The notes beneath the pieces were generated by a model that saw nothing but the letters and a program-made list of their open reading frames with translations, was not told the DNA's origin and searched no databases. 20,276 bases of DNA from a virus, in the IMG/VR virus record IMGVR_UViG_3300035698_029157, positions 1 to 20,276 of that record; one strand, written 5' to 3'. This document shows positions 1 to 20,276 of this stretch, in pieces (positions within the stretch are counted from its first letter, which is position 1; each line of letters starts with the position of its first letter). A program made the translations under genes and the position numbers.

Positions 1-545
1 ATGTTATATATGATATTTTTTCGTGGTTACAGTCCCAAGGAATTAGATCCCACGTTAACGTAAAGCATACAAAAAGAAAAAATGAAAGTCGATTATATAG
101 ATTACATATAACAGATAGAGATTTTATATTGTTTTTATCAACCTTTATGAAACACAATAAGAAAATTGATAGAATAAACTACTCATATGATAATTATAGA
201 GATTTTTCTTCTAAATATAGTATTACAGATAATGAACTGGAAAACATATTGTCAAAATATAATGAACAAAAATATGATCGTTCTATTACAAAAAATTCTA
301 GTCATACTAATATGATGGCTATAATAGGACTTGTTAAAAAACACAAAGCATTAGGTCTAGGAGGGCTTAATAGTTTTGTGGATCACAATTTAATTACAGA
401 AGAAGAGAAGAAAAACATAATGCAAAGAAGTGTTGTTGTTGATATAGATAAATATATTAATAAACAATATAAATATATTGATATATCAGTTGATGGTAAT
501 AACAATTATTATGCTGGTAATTGTGGATTAATTAATATTCATAAT
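1..545 (+). mobile_element. Intein 1 in nrdJ, C-terminal part with LAGLIDADG-type endonuclease remnant/domain
   Basis: The C-terminal splice motif is clear: a block F-like stretch (ISVDGNNNYYAGNCGLI) followed by NIHN and then Cys as +1 extein residue, i.e. the canonical penultimate His, terminal Asn and nucleophilic Cys. Upstream, the pattern WLQSQGIRSHV...RLYRLHITDRDFILFLSTF is the beta-strand/helix pattern of the second half of a LAGLIDADG homing endonuclease; the LAGLIDADG helices and the intein N-half lie beyond the left edge. The intein would excise itself and join the RNR sequence to CGLDISNLRP. Whether the endonuclease is active cannot be judged from this piece. Confidence 0.85.
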
Positions 546-1325
546 TGTGGGCTAGACATATCTAATCTCAGACCAGATGGGACAGCTACGTCAAATGCTG
601 CAAAAACTAGTACTGGCATTATTTCATTTATGGAGAGATATTCAAGATCTATAAGGGAAGTAGGCCAGCACGGACGCAGGGGAGCCTTACTCGTTTCAAT
701 AAGCGTTCACCATCCAGAAGTGTTAAAATTCGCAAAAGTAAAACGAGATCTCAAGAAAGTTACTGGTGCGAATATCTCGATTAGACTAACTGATGAATTC
801 TTGAATGCTGTTGAAAATGATGAAGAATACGAACTACGCTGGCCAGTAGACTCTAAAACGACTGAAATATCTAGGAAAGTAAATGCAAGAAGTGTTTGGA
901 GGCAAATAGTAGAAGGGGCAAGAAACGTTGGTGAACCTGGACTTCTTTTTTGGGACAATATTATACGAGAGAGTCCCTCTGATTGCTATGGCAAATTCGG
1001 ATTCACAACATGTAGTACAAATCCTTGCGTTGCAGGAAATACAAAAATATCAACAGATAAGGGTGACGTGCCAATATCTGAAATACTAGATAATGGAATA
1101 GATCAATATCTAGTAAAAACTTACAACAATGATTCGGGTAAAATAGAATACGAAAATATAATTTATGGTGACAAAACTAGAGAAAATACAGATGTCATAG
1201 AAATAGAATTAGATGATGGAGAAAAGCTGGTATTAACACCAGACCATAAGGTATATACTAAAAATAGAGGATATGTAGAGGCTTTTGATTTGGACGAAAA
1301 TGACATTATTATAAAAATAAAATAA
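1..1325 (+). CDS. nrdJ: Class II ribonucleotide reductase, N-terminal gene fragment (intein 1 C-part + extein + IntN of split intein 2); 5' partial
   Basis: The reading frame is open from the left edge (codons in phase with base 3), so the real start lies outside; the ATG at 129 is only an internal Met of intein 1. Order: C-terminal part of an intein (to 545), 160 residues of RNR extein (546-1025), then the N-half of a second intein (1026-1322) and a TAA. The extein begins CGLDISNLRPDG, the RNR segment after the glycine-rich loop, and contains RRGALLVSISVHHPEVL and GEPGLLFWDN, both typical of RNR catalytic subunits. It ends TTCSTNP, just before the catalytic cysteine. Class II is inferred from the matching C-terminal fragment (2127-3827). 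The product should be inactive until intein 1 is cis-spliced and intein 2 trans-spliced. The enzyme reduces ribonucleotides to deoxyribonucleotides with adenosylcobalamin and would supply dNTPs for phage replication. Confidence 0.9.
   Translation, partial: VIYDIFSWLQSQGIRSHVNVKHTKRKNESRLYRLHITDRDFILFLSTFMKHNKKIDRINYSYDNYRDFSSKYSITDNELENILSKYNEQKYDRSITKNSSHTNMMAIIGLVKKHKALGLGGLNSFVDHNLITEEEKKNIMQRSVVVDIDKYINKQYKYIDISVDGNNNYYAGNCGLINIHNCGLDISNLRPDGTATSNAAKTSTGIISFMERYSRSIREVGQHGRRGALLVSISVHHPEVLKFAKVKRDLKKVTGANISIRLTDEFLNAVENDEEYELRWPVDSKTTEISRKVNARSVWRQIVEGARNVGEPGLLFWDNIIRESPSDCYGKFGFTTCSTNPCVAGNTKISTDKGDVPISEILDNGIDQYLVKTYNNDSGKIEYENIIYGDKTRENTDVIEIELDDGEKLVLTPDHKVYTKNRGYVEAFDLDENDIIIKIK
1026..1322 (+). 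other. Split intein 2, N-terminal half (IntN, 99 residues)
   Basis: It begins with Cys1 directly after extein STNP and shows block A (CVAGNTKISTDKGDVPISEIL: nucleophile Cys, G, I-T-DKG, I..IL). Block B follows (LTPDHKVYTKNRGYVEAFDL, with the TxxH motif that activates the N-terminal scissile bond), ending LDENDIIIKIK and a stop. A cis-intein would carry an endonuclease or linker here; instead the ORF closes at 1325. The TPDHxVYTKNRGYV stretch strongly resembles, from memory, the IntN of the split NrdJ-1 intein described from marine metagenomes. The partner is IntC at 2127-2252. Confidence 0.92.
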
Positions 1326-1404
1326 AATAAAAAGGCACAAGGATTTATTCAATATAATCTGTAATGTAAGTTAGAGAAATTCTAATTTATATAAGGAGAT
1401 TATA

Positions 1405-2175
1405 ATGGAAAATCCTTGGAACACAACAATGAAAGTTAATTTTGACAACAATATTAAAAATGGAATCTTGGTGTGGCACAATAGCATCAGTAGATATAAA
1501 AAACACTTAAGACCCAAAAAAGTACAAGAAACTCCACTTAATAAAAATTATGTTAAATATCTAGAATCTATTTATAATGAAGGATATGGTCTTAAGGTTA
1601 TTGCTAGATGGTTGGGTATATCGTATACACAAATCAGAACACTTTTTATAAAATATTTAGAAATAAAAATAAGAAGAGGAAATGACATATCTACAGATAT
1701 AACACGAAAATTTAGAAGTGAAAGAGTAAAGGGAGATAAAAGTCCTTGGTATTGTTGGCCAGAAAAAATGCCATTTTTACTAAAAAATACAACAACTGGT
1801 GTTCAAGGCTATTATCTTAGGAAATCTGGAGAATATATTTGGTTAAGAAGTACATGGGAATATATATACGCAAAATGGCTAGATAACAAAAATATATCTT
1901 GGGAATATGAGTCCAAAACATACAAACTATCTAATGGTGAAACATATCGTCCTGACTTTAAGATATTAGGCGATAATACTTTTTTGGTAGAAATCAAAGG
2001 AAGCAGGTTTAAAGATAGATTATACAAGGTAGATTTATTTAAAAAACAGTATAGTCACATAAATATTATAGTTATTACAGATATAAGTAAATATTCTAAA
2101 ATAGGATATAAAAAGGAATTAAAAGAATGGAAAAAGATAAGATTGTCGAAAGAAGAATTAAAAAAATTACAGTGA
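1405..2175 (+). CDS. Free-standing homing endonuclease-like protein, HTH + PD-(D/E)XK-like nuclease
   Basis: 256 residues. The N-terminal half includes a helix-turn-helix-like stretch at about 52-85 (YNEGYGLKVIARWLGISYTQIRTL), suited to DNA recognition. The C-terminal half carries a nuclease-like core: E152 (STWEYIYAKWL), P183-D184 (YRPDF) and E196-x-K198 (FLVEIKG), the order and spacing of a PD-(D/E)XK/restriction-like fold, with a hydrophobic strand at about 218-225 (HINIIVIT). I see no LAGLIDADG, GIY-YIG or HNH motif and no obvious EDxHD signature. The start is supported by AAGGAG at 1393-1398, six bases upstream. The gene lies between the two halves of a split intein and its last 49 nt overlap the IntC gene, so a homing role is the natural inference. 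Exact subfamily unknown. Confidence 0.8.
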   Translation: MENPWNTTMKVNFDNNIKNGILVWHNSISRYKKHLRPKKVQETPLNKNYVKYLESIYNEGYGLKVIARWLGISYTQIRTLFIKYLEIKIRRGNDISTDITRKFRSERVKGDKSPWYCWPEKMPFLLKNTTTGVQGYYLRKSGEYIWLRSTWEYIYAKWLDNKNISWEYESKTYKLSNGETYRPDFKILGDNTFLVEIKGSRFKDRLYKVDLFKKQYSHINIIVITDISKYSKIGYKKELKEWKKIRLSKEELKKLQ

Positions 2176-2252
2176 AAAAAAATCAAGATGTTTATGATAT
2201 AACAACATCTAAAAACCATAATTTTTTTGCCAACGGTATATTGGTTCATAAT
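2127..2252 (+). other. Split intein 2, C-terminal half (IntC, 42 residues)
   Basis: A basic N-terminal segment (MEKDKIVERRIKKITVKK) is followed by block F (DVYDITTSKNHNFFANGILV) and block G (HN) before Cys+1. Penultimate His and terminal Asn, needed for Asn cyclisation, are present. Layout and the NHNFFANGILVHN stretch closely match known split NrdJ inteins as recalled. The charge of IntN (many D/E) and IntC (many K/R at its start) is complementary, as expected for halves that associate electrostatically. Confidence 0.92.
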
Positions 2253-3827
2253 TGCGCCGAATTACCGCTTCCTCCAAAAGATAGCTGTAGATTGCTTTTG
2301 GTGAATGTTTACAATTATGTAAAAAATCCGTTTACCAATAAAGCAACATTTGATTATGACACATTCTATCATGATTCCAAAATAGCACAGCGATTTATGG
2401 ACGACGTTATAGATCTTGAATTAGAATGCGTTGAACGAATAATTAAGAAAGTTAAATCCGACCCAGAACCTGATCATATAAAATCGAGAGAAGTTGGATT
2501 GTGGACTGAAATATACGATATTTGTTCCAAAGGAAGAAGAACTGGTACTGGAATTACAGGAGTTGGTGACGCTATCGCTGCACTTGGTGTTGCATATGCA
2601 TCTAACAAAAGCCTTAAGATAGTAGATAAAATTTATAAAACACTTAAACTCGGTTGCTATAGAAGTTCTGTAGATATGGCGAAAGAGTTAGGACCATTTG
2701 ATGTTTGGGACTATAAACTAGAAAAAGATAACCCCTTCTTAAATAGAATCAAAGACGAAGATCCCGATCTGTACAAAGATATGAAAAAATATGGTAGGCG
2801 AAATATTGCTCTCTTAACACAATCTCCTGCCGGTTCTGTCAGCCTACTTACTCAGACAACATCTGGCATCGAACCTCTTTTCAAACTAAGTTACATGCGT
2901 AGGAAGAAAGTAAACCCAACAGATAAAAACGTTCGCATAGATTTTGTAGATCCTACTGGTGACTCGTGGCAAAACTTTACAGTATTTCATCCCAAACTTA
3001 AAACATGGATGGAGACTACCGGCAAAACAAATGTAGAAGAATCACCATGGTTCAAATGTTGTGCTGAAGAAATAGATTGGCAAAATAGAGTACTCCTACA
3101 AGCAAAAGCAACAAGACATATTGACCATTCTATTTCTTCAACTATCAATTTGCCAGAGGACGTATCGGTAGAAACCGTAGCACAAATTTATGAAAAAGCA
3201 TGGAAAGCAGGACTAAAAGGAATCACTGTTTATAGAAAAAATAGTAGAACAGGTGTACTCGTTGATACAGAAGACTGCCCTGAATGCCACAGGAATTCAG
3301 ACAAAATTACTAAGAGAGACGCTCCTAAGAGACCTAAATCTTTGCCATGCGATATACACCATGTCAGTGTAAAGGGCGAAGCATATCTAGTCCTCGTTGG
3401 ACTTATGAATGGTGACCCTTATGAAGTTTTCGCAATGAAGAATGGTCAGATACCTAAGTCTGCAAATGTTGGTATGCTTAAGAAAGTAAAGCGTGGACAT
3501 TATAGATTGACTACAGAAAAAGATAATGTTAAAATAGAGAATATAATGGATCAGAGCGGAGAGTTGGAGGAAGCAATCACAAGATTGGTGTCTGCTAGCT
3601 TAAGACATGGTGCAGATATAGAATTTATTGTGCATCAACTAGAGAAAACAAAAACATCAGATGTTTTTGGTTCGTTTGAGAAAGCTATCGCGCGAAGTAT
3701 CAAAAAGTATATCCCAGATGGAACAAAAGTATCTGGCGAAACATGCACTTCATGCGGGTCTGACGAGATACAAAGAAGAGACGGATGTTTGTATTGTATG
3801 AGTTGCGGGTTTTCACTCTGTTCTTAG
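2127..3827 (+). CDS. nrdJ: Class II ribonucleotide reductase, C-terminal gene fragment (IntC of split intein 2 + C-extein)
   Basis: 566 residues: 42 of IntC, then C-extein from Cys43. The C-extein opens CAELPLPPKDSC; joined to STNP it gives NPCAE, the RNR N-C-E active-site triad. Later it has QSPAGSVSLLTQTTSGIEPLF and LKGITVYRKNSRTGVL, typical of adenosylcobalamin-dependent NrdJ. The C-terminus has cysteine clusters CPEC (near 388) and CTSC...CLYCMSCGFSLC (540-565), the zinc-ribbon/redox-cysteine tail usual in class II enzymes. No NrdB-type small subunit gene is in the window, as expected for class II. The start ATG at 2127 lies inside the endonuclease gene and has AGGA at 2114-2117, so translation is probably coupled to that ORF. 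dut follows 16 nt downstream. Confidence 0.93.
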   Translation: MEKDKIVERRIKKITVKKNQDVYDITTSKNHNFFANGILVHNCAELPLPPKDSCRLLLVNVYNYVKNPFTNKATFDYDTFYHDSKIAQRFMDDVIDLELECVERIIKKVKSDPEPDHIKSREVGLWTEIYDICSKGRRTGTGITGVGDAIAALGVAYASNKSLKIVDKIYKTLKLGCYRSSVDMAKELGPFDVWDYKLEKDNPFLNRIKDEDPDLYKDMKKYGRRNIALLTQSPAGSVSLLTQTTSGIEPLFKLSYMRRKKVNPTDKNVRIDFVDPTGDSWQNFTVFHPKLKTWMETTGKTNVEESPWFKCCAEEIDWQNRVLLQAKATRHIDHSISSTINLPEDVSVETVAQIYEKAWKAGLKGITVYRKNSRTGVLVDTEDCPECHRNSDKITKRDAPKRPKSLPCDIHHVSVKGEAYLVLVGLMNGDPYEVFAMKNGQIPKSANVGMLKKVKRGHYRLTTEKDNVKIENIMDQSGELEEAITRLVSASLRHGADIEFIVHQLEKTKTSDVFGSFEKAIARSIKKYIPDGTKVSGETCTSCGSDEIQRRDGCLYCMSCGFSLCS

Positions 3828-3843
3828 GAAGAAAGACAATATT

Positions 3844-4413
3844 ATGACGAATAGAAATAAGAAAATAAAAGGATATAAAGGCAGGAAGTTAAAGATCAAG
3901 AAATTACACAAAGATGCTGTATTGCCCTCACGTTCGCATCCAAATGATGCAGGATATGATATTGTCGCTATTGACAATGGAACTTTCAAACTTATAAAGA
4001 TAGAAGATAGCGACGATTTTTGGAGACTATTGTATATTCAATATAAAACAGGATTAGCTATAGAACCATCAGAAGGTTATCATATTGAATTTGTAGCTCG
4101 TTCATCCATATCTAAAACAGATCTCATACTGTCTAATTGTATAGCTATAGGAGATCAAGGATATAGGGGAGAATATATGCTAAGATTTAAAGTTCCTTCT
4201 TTTTCTCACACAACAGTACAAGCCGAGAACGAAAGAGAAGCAGAATTGCTATTCCAATCTAATTCAAGAGAAATTGGAATAATAAAATTTGACGCTGGTG
4301 ACAGAATAGCACAATTACTTATCAGAAAAACAAAATCATTAGATATATGTGAAGTCGATGAACTTAATGACACAGAAAGAGGCAAAGGCAGATTCGGATC
4401 AACAGGAAAATAA
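3844..4413 (+). CDS. dut: dUTP diphosphatase (trimeric dUTPase family)
   Basis: Hydrolyses dUTP to dUMP and pyrophosphate, keeping uracil out of DNA and feeding dTMP synthesis. All five family motifs are visible in order: I DAGYDI (35-40), II RSSIS (86-90, replacing the usual PRSG), III IGDQGYRGE (102-110, with the catalytic Asp three residues before Tyr), IV AGDRIAQLLI (151-160) and V RGKGRFGSTG (179-188, the C-terminal lid). At 189 residues it is longer than typical 145-155-residue bacterial enzymes; the extra length lies at about 44-66 and 117-145 plus a basic N-terminal extension. The start follows AGGAAGA by about 10 nt. It lies 16 nt after nrdJ, so the two are likely cotranscribed, and ends ahead of an intrinsic terminator. 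Confidence 0.95.
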   Translation: MTNRNKKIKGYKGRKLKIKKLHKDAVLPSRSHPNDAGYDIVAIDNGTFKLIKIEDSDDFWRLLYIQYKTGLAIEPSEGYHIEFVARSSISKTDLILSNCIAIGDQGYRGEYMLRFKVPSFSHTTVQAENEREAELLFQSNSREIGIIKFDAGDRIAQLLIRKTKSLDICEVDELNDTERGKGRFGSTGK

Positions 4414-6252: not shown

Positions 6253-6636
6253 TTGGATTATATTAAGGACATGATAACAAGTAGTAGATATAAAACTATA
6301 ACAGATGATATTGACAACACTCTACTATCTGACAATAGATCGCTAGTAAGTGCAACGAATTTTAGCTCAAGACTTGAGATCATTGATGATAATTTTAATA
6401 TAGATCTTTCAGATGGGATATACGATTCTGTCACTCTTATTAATAATTTGACATCTCAGGATGGATCTCCGTCTATAACAGACAGTCTTATAACCGCACT
6501 ACAACAACACATTCTCAATAGCGGTTATAACAGTATAGATGATTATCTTGATGAAAATAGTTTACAAGTAAAATCTAGTTTTGCCAATAGATCAATAATT
6601 TTAGGATATGTTATCAGTAATGAGTTCATAGAATAA
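6253..6636 (+). CDS. Small hypothetical protein upstream of terL
   Basis: 127 residues from TTG at 6253, or 121 from the ATG at 6271; an in-frame TAG at 6247 rules out a longer start. The ATG has AAGGA only one base away, too close to serve it, so the TTG may be real, but neither start has an ideal ribosome binding site. The sequence is acidic, Ser/Asp/Asn-rich and predicted helical with hydrophobic repeats (LVSATNFSSRLEIIDDNF, LITALQQHILNS, IILGYVISNEFIE). I recognise no domain. The stop overlaps the terL start (TAATG, 6634-6638), implying translational coupling; position suggests a packaging role such as a small terminase partner, but no HTH supports that. Confidence 0.65.
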   Translation: MDYIKDMITSSRYKTITDDIDNTLLSDNRSLVSATNFSSRLEIIDDNFNIDLSDGIYDSVTLINNLTSQDGSPSITDSLITALQQHILNSGYNSIDDYLDENSLQVKSSFANRSIILGYVISNEFIE

Positions 6637-8537
6637 TGCCAAGAAAATATCCATTAAAGAAAAAGTCTAGCATATCTGACCTAGTAAAACAGGCTCAGAT
6701 AGATTTGGCAGAAAACTCTGGTTCAACCATTCCAGATATAATTACATTTTGTGAAAATGATTCATATCTTGGGTTGCCGAGACAGAATCTCTGTCTTTTC
6801 CCGATACAGAAAATAATACTCAAGATTTTTTATCGTGGTTCACTAGGAAATGAGAATATAATACTTACAGAAGAAGATATACAAGCATGTAAAGATTGTG
6901 GAATTGATACACAAGCAAAGGGTGGAGTTATAGAAAAATTCAACAACGAATCTTTATTTAGAGAACTAGTTCTTGTGTGGGGAAGAAGAAGTGGAAAAGA
7001 CTTTTGTTCTTCTATCATAAGTACATATGAAGCTATGAGACTTCTTGAATGTCAAGGTGGGAATCCATATACGATATACGGATGTGCCCCTGATCAACCG
7101 ATATCTCTGCTAACAATAGCTACGGCATCTAAACAAGCAGAGATTGCATTTAATGCTATTAAAGCAAGAATAATAAACAGTAAATATTTTTCTGACAAGA
7201 TAGGTCAAGACGGGATCGGAACAAGTCAGATCAATTTGTTGACTCCTCATGACAAAAAATTTAACAAAGAACTTGCTGGAAAGTCGCTGCCAAAACAAAA
7301 AGGATCTATAGTTATAGAGGTTGGACATAGCAACTCTGATACTCTTCTTGGTAAACAGTGTTTCGTTCTACTTTTTGACGAAGTTGCGAGTTACAAACAA
7401 ACTGGCGGGTCTTCTGGTGGAGAAAGAATATATGCAGCACTTACCCCTTCTTTACAAACTTTTGGTAGAACTGTAAAGAAAATAAACGAAGACGGGAACA
7501 AAGTAGATGAAAGAGAGTTAGATAGCAAATTTATTTGCATATCATCTCCGCGAGGCGAAGAGGGACTATTTTATCGTCTTTACAAAGAGGCTCATTTGGT
7601 TGATAGTAGATTAATGTGTCAGTTACCTACTTGGAAAGTTAATATTCCAATTACAGAGAAATCTTTGAGGGAAACTAATACGTCTATGGCAGACCAAGAC
7701 TTTATGATGGAATATGGTGCAGAGTTTTCTGGTAGTGCTGGTGAAAATTTCTTTATTAGAGAAAAGGTTATTAGTTGTTTCAAGCCAGAGCTTACTATAC
7801 AAAAAATGGGAGATATAGGTAATGTTTATTTTGCCCATCTTGATCCAGCCCATACAAGCCACAACTATGCATTAGCTATAGTTCACAGAGAAAACTTTCT
7901 TGATAGAGTAACTAAAAATGTTGACTTTAGGATAATAGTTGATCATATACATTATTGGCATCCAACAATTGATTCTCCTGTTAATATAGAGGCGGTGGAT
8001 GAATATGTTCTTGCGTTGAAGAGAAGATTCTTTCTTGGTATGGTTACTTATGATAGTTGGAATTCAATACAAAGTATAGAAAAATTAAAAAAGAACGGAA
8101 TACCATCTAAATGTACTCCTTATAACGCGAAATATAAAGTAGCGATATATAATCAATTAGAAGTACTTGTGAACAGCGGTAAGATATGGTCTCCAAGACA
8201 TAGACTACTAAAAGATGAGATGTTTCATTTACAAAGAAAGTATACTGCACTTGGTTTCAGGGTTGCTCCTCCGAAAGAAGGAGAGATTAGGACAGATGAT
8301 GTTGTAGACGCACTTGCTGGTGCCGTATATACTGCAATGAATGCCAGAGCGCATTGTTTGCCTCAGAGCAGACTGGTTAGCACAGGAGTTGTCCCGTCTA
8401 GTAATTCTACAACATGGAGATCTATGCAAGGATCTTCTTATGGAACTGGGACTGGACCTCAAGTTGCTAGTGCTATGGAAAATAGAAGACCTAATCAATC
8501 GCAGCAGATACCTCCATCCTATTTTAGACCACAATGA
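6636..8537 (+). CDS. terL: Phage terminase, large subunit (ATPase + nuclease)
   Basis: The DNA-packaging motor. Of its 633 residues, the N-terminal ATPase has Walker A GRRSGKD (116-122, preceded by LVLVW), an adenine/Q-like approach at about 50-66, Walker B FVLLFDEV (243-250) with catalytic Glu, and motif III ISSPRGEEG (303-310). The C-terminal RNase H-like nuclease shows the expected acidic residues: HLDPAHTSHNYALAIVH (D403), MVTYDSWNS (D473) and RTDDVVDALAGAV (D554-D558). The tail from about 575 is Ser/Gln/Pro-rich. The length and the GRRSGKD form fit terminases of large phages. The start ATG overlaps the previous stop by one base. It would work with a portal ring; a portal-like gene lies at 19120. 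It may be followed by a separate transcript, as a 70-nt gap comes next. Confidence 0.95.
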   Translation: MPRKYPLKKKSSISDLVKQAQIDLAENSGSTIPDIITFCENDSYLGLPRQNLCLFPIQKIILKIFYRGSLGNENIILTEEDIQACKDCGIDTQAKGGVIEKFNNESLFRELVLVWGRRSGKDFCSSIISTYEAMRLLECQGGNPYTIYGCAPDQPISLLTIATASKQAEIAFNAIKARIINSKYFSDKIGQDGIGTSQINLLTPHDKKFNKELAGKSLPKQKGSIVIEVGHSNSDTLLGKQCFVLLFDEVASYKQTGGSSGGERIYAALTPSLQTFGRTVKKINEDGNKVDERELDSKFICISSPRGEEGLFYRLYKEAHLVDSRLMCQLPTWKVNIPITEKSLRETNTSMADQDFMMEYGAEFSGSAGENFFIREKVISCFKPELTIQKMGDIGNVYFAHLDPAHTSHNYALAIVHRENFLDRVTKNVDFRIIVDHIHYWHPTIDSPVNIEAVDEYVLALKRRFFLGMVTYDSWNSIQSIEKLKKNGIPSKCTPYNAKYKVAIYNQLEVLVNSGKIWSPRHRLLKDEMFHLQRKYTALGFRVAPPKEGEIRTDDVVDALAGAVYTAMNARAHCLPQSRLVSTGVVPSSNSTTWRSMQGSSYGTGTGPQVASAMENRRPNQSQQIPPSYFRPQ

Positions 8538-19104: not shown

Positions 19105-19119
19105 TTGGAGAATAACATT

Positions 19120-20276
19120 ATGCCTATAAAATTTAATTTACCCGCGAAGCCCTTTAAAGATGTGGACGGACACGTGGTATCAACTGGGGGATACAATAAA
19201 ACAGGTTCACAACAACAGCAACAAACATATACAGCTAGCAGCCTTTCAACAACACCACTTACTAAAGCTTCACAGTTTGCTGGGTCAGGAGCAAATGTTA
19301 TTTGGACCCAACCTATGTTCTTTAGCCCACTTCACACGCCACAGAACTGGCAGATCGCGAGCAAGAGAAGAGAGCAATATCAGTGGTCGTTCATTGATAT
19401 TGATTCCAGAACTCCTTGTTATATAACAACTTATGATGGTTCATTAAAACTTATTAGTGAGTTTTTTGATGAAGCAACTAAGCCTACTTCTTCGTGTATC
19501 AGGTTAATAGAACAAGAAAAAGCTACCCTTGTTCAAGACGGACATGGCAATATAGCTATACCTGACAAGACATCAAAACGCAAAGTTAATAAGAAAGCAA
19601 ATAAAATCAAGGTTCTTGGTCTACCAGATCCGCTACATCTTACCAACGATCACAATTGTATTGTTATTAAATCCGACGACATTAAATGTAGAAAAAGTAA
19701 ATGGAATAAGAAAAAGTGCGTATATAATCATTTTGCCCCGACTTGCAAAAGACATAAATGTAAAGAATGTTATGACAAAGAATATAAAATATCTACTGTA
19801 AAAGCTAGAGAAATAAATAAGGGCGATCACGTTCTTATACCTTTCAATACAGATGTAGAATCAAGTATTATTACTAGTGATGACAAGGCAAGATATGCTG
19901 GACATTTGGCAGCAGACGGTTGGGTATGTGATGGGGACAATAAGACAAAATATAAAGCTGTTGGAATCTGCATGAATACAGATGAAGTTGATTATGTAAA
20001 ACCATGCGTTGATCAAGTATATAATTCATTAAAGCCAGATCCATCATGCGCTCTAAAATTAAGAATCCAGAAACATAGCTCTAAAGTAGTAGCACTAGTT
20101 ACTTCATACAGTAAAATATATGAATTCGGTTTTAATTTAGTAAAAGGAAAAGGATCTAACAAAAAATTCACAGATCAGGTAACTTTACTTGATCCCAAAG
20201 TGCAGCTTCATGTTATAGGGGCTTATATTCAATCAGATGGTTGTTATAACAAAGCAAACTCATGTGTCGAAATTAC
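19120..20276 (+). CDS. Probable phage portal protein, N-terminal part, interrupted by an intein; 3' partial
   Basis: ATG at 19120 has GGAG (19107-19110) nine bases upstream; the frame stays open to the right edge. Extein residues 1-99: a Gly/Gln/Thr-rich start (PAKPFKDVDGHVVSTGGYNKTGSQ, a run of five Q) and the block MFFSPLHTPQNWQIASKRREQYQW, which resembles the N-terminal helix region of portal proteins of large phages (P-L-x-T-P-x-N-W-Q-I..RR). From Cys100 the sequence is intein. The C-extein lies outside the window, so the portal call rests on ~40 residues plus the context of terL and head-type genes and is moderate. A portal forms the dodecameric DNA entry ring that docks the terminase. 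The intein must be spliced out for function. Confidence 0.6.
   Translation, partial: MPIKFNLPAKPFKDVDGHVVSTGGYNKTGSQQQQQTYTASSLSTTPLTKASQFAGSGANVIWTQPMFFSPLHTPQNWQIASKRREQYQWSFIDIDSRTPCYITTYDGSLKLISEFFDEATKPTSSCIRLIEQEKATLVQDGHGNIAIPDKTSKRKVNKKANKIKVLGLPDPLHLTNDHNCIVIKSDDIKCRKSKWNKKKCVYNHFAPTCKRHKCKECYDKEYKISTVKAREINKGDHVLIPFNTDVESSIITSDDKARYAGHLAADGWVCDGDNKTKYKAVGICMNTDEVDYVKPCVDQVYNSLKPDPSCALKLRIQKHSSKVVALVTSYSKIYEFGFNLVKGKGSNKKFTDQVTLLDPKVQLHVIGAYIQSDGCYNKANSCVEI
19417..20276 (+). mobile_element. Intein 3 with LAGLIDADG homing endonuclease, 3' partial
   Basis: It begins at Cys100 after DSRTP. Block A is CYITTYDGSLKLISEFFDE and block B-like is LHLTNDHNCIVIKSDD (T-x-x-H). A Cys/His-rich insert follows (19687-19770). 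LAGLIDADG helix 1 is AGHLAADGWV (19897-19926) and helix 2 is IGAYIQSDG (20215-20241), about 110 residues apart, a normal spacing for a two-motif enzyme. The Asp of each motif is present (AADG, QSDG), so the nuclease may be active. Block F/G and the C-extein are beyond the edge. Confidence 0.9.

What the first reader, a model, noticed from the sequence alone, without database searches (positions are those of the whole stretch)
1026..2252. Fractured nrdJ: split intein flanking a nested nuclease gene
The catalytic subunit is encoded by two ORFs that cannot make an active enzyme without protein trans-splicing. IntN (99 aa) and IntC (42 aa) both keep all splice residues (Cys1, TxxH, HN, Cys+1), and a complete endonuclease-like ORF lies between them. 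The arrangement is known from a few marine metagenomic genes, including NrdJ; each intact natural example is valuable, and fast split inteins of this family have been found this way.
Basis: partly seen in the sequence, partly recalled or inferred. Interest (0 to 1): 0.85.

Follow-up and report, generated by a model that had tools for sequence, protein, structure and literature searches.

The report
Split intein breaking phage ribonucleotide reductase
A phage's ribonucleotide reductase gene is broken in two, just before its catalytic cysteine, by a self-joining protein element with a DNA-cutting enzyme gene nested inside; the arrangement is real and of a known kind, but the nuclease gene also appears to carry the translation start of the second half of the enzyme.

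Summary
IntN (1026-1322, 99 aa) and IntC (2127-2252, 42 aa) score as intein halves, keep Cys1, TPDH, HN and Cys+1, and are most like the solved split intein NrdJ-1. Between them lies a complete 256-aa nuclease: HTH-like helices plus a T7-endonuclease-I-like PD-(D/E)XK domain. Dozens of stop codons separate the halves, and five relatives have uninterrupted nrdJ, so this is a "fractured gene".

It is not rare. One capped IMG/VR scan plus the nuclease searches gave 51 distinct loci at this class II reductase site: 36 split with nuclease, 5 split with remnants, 2 split with no or a more distant nuclease, 8 contiguous mini-inteins. Nuclease and reductase trees conflict strongly, as homing predicts.

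Beyond the finding: (i) in 32 of 42 split loci, the window included, the IntC start codon lies out of frame in the nuclease's C-terminal KELxEW-like motif, whose codons carry a Shine-Dalgarno-like AAGGA(G) (AAG at 17 of 20 lysines, 4.9 expected); four nuclease-deleted loci keep it. (ii) Most junctions are Pro|Cys, although -1 Pro impairs NrdJ-1. (iii) The junction has slid by one codon several times.

Splicing, cleavage and use of the nested start are inferred, not shown.

The parts
546..1025 (+). N-extein: part of the class II ribonucleotide reductase NrdJ barrel, ending ...TTCSTNP (-1 residue Pro)
   Evidence: TIGR02504 and PF02867 matches; intact homologues read on through NPC[SG]E
1026..1322 (+). 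IntN, 99 aa, Cys1 ... TPDH
   Evidence: TIGR01445 above cut-off; NrdJ-1 1.3e-11; alignment A2, Cys1 invariant in 23
1323..1325 (+). TAA stop of the N-half ORF
1393..1398 (+). AAGGAG, Shine-Dalgarno-like site of the nuclease gene
   Evidence: scored
1405..2175 (+). Nested nuclease gene, 256 aa: HTH-like N-terminal helices and a PD-(D/E)XK domain (E152, D184, E196, K198)
   Evidence: PF05367 7.7e-5, below Pfam cut-off; T7 endonuclease I 1.4e-4 with the family profile; AF2 pLDDT 87, TnsA Z 8.1; catalytic residues 17 of 17
2113..2117 (+). AAGGA inside the nuclease gene (around codons K237-E238): Shine-Dalgarno-like site for IntC
   Evidence: AAG preference 17 of 20 vs 4.85 expected across relatives
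2127..2129 (+). ATG start of IntC, out of frame within nuclease codons E241-W242 (GAA TGG)
   Evidence: same position in 32 of 42 split loci
2127..2252 (+). IntC, 42 aa, ending VHN
   Evidence: TIGR01443 above cut-off; PF14890; alignment A3
2253..2255 (+). Cys+1 (TGC): splicing nucleophile and, by the NPCxE motif, the reductase's catalytic cysteine
   Evidence: position relative to intact homologues; catalytic role from general knowledge of the family
2253..3824 (+). C-extein: NrdJ C-half with TSCPD domain
   Evidence: TIGR02504 1.7e-77, PF12637

Best explanation
This is a mobile, naturally split intein of the NrdJ-1 type in the fractured-gene arrangement. The two nrdJ ORFs are translated separately; IntN and IntC associate, splice in trans and join STNP to CAELP, restoring the NPCAE active site, so the reductase should become active only after splicing. 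The nuclease between them recognises the uninterrupted NPCxE-coding stretch of class II reductase genes and, by double-strand-break repair (homing), copies IntN, nuclease and IntC into it. The nuclease's last codons also form the ribosome-binding site and start codon of the IntC half, which ties expression of the second half of the enzyme to that stretch of nuclease DNA. Shown here: anatomy, conservation, empty sites, tree conflict, position of the nested start and its codon signature. Inferred: splicing, cleavage, homing, use of the nested start.
For: Both halves above curated intein cut-offs. The profile of contiguous relatives matches NrdJ-1 at 1.6e-39, and the model of one of them fits NrdJ-1 at TM 0.86. 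All splice residues present. Same IntN-nuclease-IntC order at the same reductase site in the close nuclease relatives, as far as the contigs reach. Uninterrupted homologues. Catalytic residues invariant in 17 nucleases, and dN/dS 0.12-0.38 between close nuclease relatives. Nuclease data reject the reductase clade that holds the window (p-AU 5e-7); reductase data reject the nuclease clade (p-AU 5e-47). That nuclease clade sits in both TIGR02504-type and TIGR02505-type class II reductases. Nested start in 32 of 42 loci with biased AAG codon (p 2e-8, not corrected for shared descent). Nuclease-deleted loci L072, L079, L115, L138 keep that tail.
Against: No activity was measured. The window has no close relative, so its own nuclease cannot be tested for selection. 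-1 Pro significantly compromised NrdJ-1 (PMC13123727), and the window's junction is Pro|Cys, so splicing could be slower or less clean than in NrdJ-1. Ten of 42 loci do not use the nested start. One metagenome contig, no reads examined.
Confidence: 0.88

Rival explanations
1. The two halves work without splicing: N-half and C-half associate non-covalently into an active reductase, and the intein pieces are just tails.
For: Precedent: the split NrdA of phage Aeh1 is active as two polypeptides (PMC2988022).
Against: All splice residues are kept in the window and nearly all through 23 aligned family members, with one penultimate-His exception; contiguous forms of the same intein at the same site make sense only if it splices; the catalytic Cys would stay behind a 42-aa IntC.
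Confidence: 0.05
2. Assembly or sequencing artefact of a contiguous intein with an embedded nuclease domain.
For: Single metagenome contig, no reads seen.
Against: Dozens of stops in frame; nuclease in another frame with its own start and Shine-Dalgarno-like site; same order in dozens of contigs.
Confidence: 0.01
3. A self-splicing RNA intron lies in the intein gene and the nuclease is its homing enzyme.
For: Introns and inteins do co-occur in phage reductase genes (PMC3653736).
Against: No group I or II match in Rfam; only 79 nt lie between the IntN stop and the nuclease start, and the nuclease ORF overlaps IntC, so there is little room for a ribozyme core.
Confidence: 0.01
4. A decaying element: the split intein is fixed and splices, but the nuclease is no longer active in this phage.
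For: Nuclease loss has happened in several relatives; the window's nuclease cannot be tested for selection.
Against: Full length, with E152, E169, D184, E196 and K198 all present and a good start site.
Confidence: 0.1

Closest known systems
Fractured genes with split inteins (Dassa et al. 2009, NAR 37:2560; not held in the library, known here from citations in PMC3653736 and PMC7090010)
   Same: Enzyme gene broken by a split intein with a free-standing endonuclease between; nrdA and nrdJ were among the reported hosts (7 nrdA, 2 nrdJ per PMC3653736).
   Different: Nested start codon, remnant series and one-codon slide were not found in the sources I could read; whether the 2009 paper saw them is unchecked. 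Its new nuclease family is Vsr-like as I recall it; this nuclease is closest to T7 endonuclease I.
NrdJ-1 split intein (PDB 8ubs, 9omb)
   Same: Closest solved relative by sequence and fold; split at the same place in the intein.
   Different: NrdJ-1 junction NPC|..|SEI with obligate Ser+1 (PMC13123727); here NP|..|CAE with Cys+1 and Pro at -1.
Inteins of the B12-dependent reductase model PRK08332 (NCBIfam NF006207; archaeal by recollection)
   Same: The model runs colinearly through the left intein, the extein and the start of IntN, and again through IntC and the C-extein, so both sites appear shared.
   Different: The model is one 1684-position protein, that is, contiguous inteins; no split.
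T7 endonuclease I / TnsA-type PD-(D/E)XK nucleases
   Same: Catalytic domain by profile (1.4e-4) and fold (TnsA Z 8.1).
   Different: Added N-terminal HTH-like region and a C-terminal motif that overlaps the IntC start.

Membership tests
Intein (Hint splicing domain, class 1) | Cys/Ser1, TxxH, terminal His-Asn, Cys/Ser/Thr+1 | tested here: met
   C1, TPDH, HN, C+1; TIGR01445 and TIGR01443 above cut-off
Intein (Hint splicing domain, class 1) | Hint fold | tested here: met
   By proxy: model of contiguous relative L086, pLDDT 91.5, NrdJ-1 TM 0.86
Naturally split intein | Two halves on separate reading frames at the canonical site | tested here: met
   99 + 42 aa, dozens of stops between
Naturally split intein | Trans-splicing activity | not testable with these tools
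   needs co-expression
Fractured gene | Conserved enzyme gene broken by a split intein with a free-standing endonuclease gene between | tested here: met
NrdJ-1 as such | Junction after the catalytic Cys, Ser+1 | tested here: not met
   junction before the Cys, Cys+1 (NrdJ-1 flanks)
PD-(D/E)XK nuclease, T7 endonuclease I-like | E...PD...ExK active site and fold | tested here: met
   E152, D184, E196, K198 in 17 of 17
PD-(D/E)XK nuclease, T7 endonuclease I-like | DNA cleavage | not testable with these tools
   needs the enzyme
EDxHD (I-Bth0305I / Vsr-like) homing endonuclease | EDxHD active site | tested here: inconclusive
   active site reads ExK, but the I-Bth0305I catalytic domain is listed at Z 5.1
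Group I intron | Conserved ribozyme core around the nuclease gene | tested here: not met
   no Rfam intron match at E up to 1

The most novel reading that the evidence does not exclude
The nuclease gene is not merely inserted: its conserved C-terminal coding stretch is the ribosome-binding site and start codon of the second half of an essential enzyme, so the phage cannot lose that stretch without losing reductase. This would explain why several nuclease-deleted loci keep exactly that tail, and would be a way for a selfish gene to entrench itself and to keep an intein split. Split and contiguous forms then interconvert repeatedly at one site.
Probability: 0.65. Interest if true: 0.65.

Novelty: new member of a known kind. 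Interest (0 to 1): 0.5.

Why it matters
The window itself is one more fractured nrdJ. The set it opens is more useful: at one position of one enzyme there are empty sites, split inteins with a full nuclease, split inteins with nuclease remnants, and contiguous mini-inteins, so the open question of how split inteins arise and whether they fuse again can be tested directly. The Pro|Cys junctions supply natural candidates for splicing after proline, which NrdJ-1 does poorly, and Cys+1 counterparts to a widely used Ser+1 tool.

Tried and rejected
Group I/II intron in the gap: no Rfam match. Cellular relatives of the nuclease: one genome contigs pattern scan gave none; the pattern is narrow, so absence is weak. 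Promoter and terminator scan over 900-2400: promoter-like sites only about one standard deviation above shuffles, and no terminator on the coding strand. Phage records: only weak matches to the nuclease and diverged inteins at 27-47% identity to IntN. Dassa et al. 2009 could not be read. The intein-only trees are too short to place the window firmly. Whether contiguous forms come from split ones or the reverse: trees show six to seven switches but give no root; the alignment of L086 with L104 fits fusion by deletion but does not prove it. No known fold for the N-terminal helices was established (one weak repressor match, Z 4.3).

Full report
1. Check. The ORFs are as described. The N-half ORF (open at the left end, to TAA 1323-1325) ends with IntN 1026-1322; the nuclease ORF is 1405-2175; the C-half ORF 2127-3827 starts with IntC 2127-2252. 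TIGR01445 and TIGR01443 hit the two halves above their curated cut-offs, and TIGR02504 (B12-dependent class II ribonucleotide reductase, NrdJ) hits both exteins. The IntN/IntC frame is full of stops between 1325 and 2127. The record is a 20,276-base virus fragment.

2. Site. Five NrdJ relatives read straight through (for example L003 ...YRTISTNPCSELPLSAYDSCRL). The window reads ...FTTCSTNP | intein | CAELPLPPKDSCRL. The element therefore sits directly before the Cys of NPCxE, which from general knowledge of reductases is the thiyl-radical cysteine; it would serve as splicing nucleophile +1 and then as catalytic residue. The NCBIfam model PRK08332, a reductase with inteins, runs colinearly through both window inteins, so both sites are probably shared with contiguous inteins of cellular (as I recall, archaeal) reductases.

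3. The nuclease. Pfam gives Phage_endo_I below cut-off (7.7e-5). The family profile finds T7 endonuclease I in the PDB (1.4e-4). The AF2 model (pLDDT 87) has N-terminal helices and then a restriction-endonuclease-like domain; best structural match TnsA, Z 8.1, 132 residues, 3.6 A. The N-terminal helices are called HTH-like from weak profile matches. E152, E169, D184, E196 and K198 are invariant in 17. Close pairs of relatives show dN/dS 0.12-0.38, so the gene is under purifying selection in those lineages.

4. Relatives. Nuclease searches of IMG/VR gave 16 and then 48 loci. The close relatives all lie between IntN and IntC, where these are on the contig, at the same reductase site; the distant ones (L050-L068) matched mostly the catalytic core and showed no intein halves nearby by the patterns used. 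A scan with the IntN alignment found 369 candidates, of which the best 80 were kept. After pooling with the nuclease loci and merging near-copies (IntN over 93% identical and same state) there are 51 loci: 36 split with a nuclease match over 100 residues, 5 split with a remnant, 2 split without a nuclease match at the threshold used (L116 has a different nuclease, L115 only a short tail), and 8 contiguous mini-inteins. These counts come from capped, similarity-ranked scans and are not frequencies.

5. Mobility. Reductase hosts fall in two class II subfamilies, TIGR02504 and TIGR02505. Nuclease and reductase trees disagree: the window's reductase groups with L020, L021, L041 and L048, its nuclease with ten others spread over both subfamilies. 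AU tests reject each grouping on the other data (p 5e-7 and 5e-47). The intein itself is short; its data reject both groupings only marginally (p 0.046 and 0.033). The groups were chosen after seeing the trees, so p values are optimistic, but the likelihood gaps (90 and 704 units) are large.

6. Nested start. In the window, IntC's ATG (2127) is made from nuclease codons GAA TGG (E241-W242), preceded by AAGGA from the codons around AAG GAA. Of 42 distinct split loci examined, 32 place the IntC start codon at this same Trp. Among 28 loci of this type with a full nuclease, 23 carry AGGA, GGAG or GAGG in the preceding seven codons; where position -5 is Lys it is AAG in 17 of 20, against 4.85 expected from the same genes (background 187 AAG, 712 AAA; p 2e-8, treating loci as independent). 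Nuclease-deleted loci L072, L079, L115 and L138 keep the tail with this start; L138 differs from the near-identical L127 by a 564-nt in-frame deletion of the nuclease core. L071 keeps the tail but its IntC start is not in frame, and L114 keeps a different segment.

7. Junction. 37 of 51 loci are NP|..|C and 14 are NPC|..|S or NPC|..|C. L127 (NP|..|CCEIALRP) and L134 (NPC|..|CEIALRP) would give the same spliced sequence from junctions one codon apart; the intein tree needs at least four such changes. NrdJ-1 belongs to the second type (native flanks NPC and SEI). In NrdJ-1 a -1 Pro significantly compromised reaction fidelity. The window type has Pro there naturally, so its behaviour is worth measuring.

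8. Split and contiguous. The intein tree needs six to seven switches between split and contiguous states, with close sister pairs such as L086/L104, L118/L013 and L100/L048. Direction is not settled.

9. Verdict. A genuine natural split intein in a fractured nrdJ: a new member of a known kind.

Noticed in passing
window 3-545: Tail of a second, contiguous intein in the same nrdJ gene, ending ...INIHN before CGLDISNLRP; the contig begins inside it. The PRK08332 model covers part of it.
   Followed up: partly
window 19105-20274: ORF running off the right end looks like an intein with LAGLIDADG-type motifs (DIDSRTP|CYITTYDG..., AGHLAADGW, GAYIQSDGC) in what may be a structural gene; no NCBIfam model confirmed it.
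   Followed up: no
L042-L044: IntC ends VKNC: penultimate His replaced by Lys.
   Followed up: no
L014, L018, L115, L138: The same reductase genes carry the start of a further intein-like insert downstream (after KPSG or KPAG, or APTG in L115).
   Followed up: no
L127 vs L134: Inteins one codon apart in related reductases would yield the same spliced NPCCEIALRP.
   Followed up: partly
L116, L125: Different PD-(D/E)XK-like nucleases, with other added modules, occupy the same split.
   Followed up: no
L148 (Listeria phage LIS04, OQ999172.1 27889-35449): Cultured phage annotated with intein region, endonuclease, Hint domain, then terminase: possible fractured terminase gene, apparently rearranged.
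   Followed up: partly
L071: Nuclease remnant keeps the C-terminal tail, but IntC lacks an in-frame start at the Trp: frameshift or sequence error.
   Followed up: no
window 3844-4413 and 6636-8537: dUTPase-like ORF (PF00692) downstream of nrdJ; 633-aa ORF that reads like a large terminase but had no NCBIfam match.
   Followed up: no
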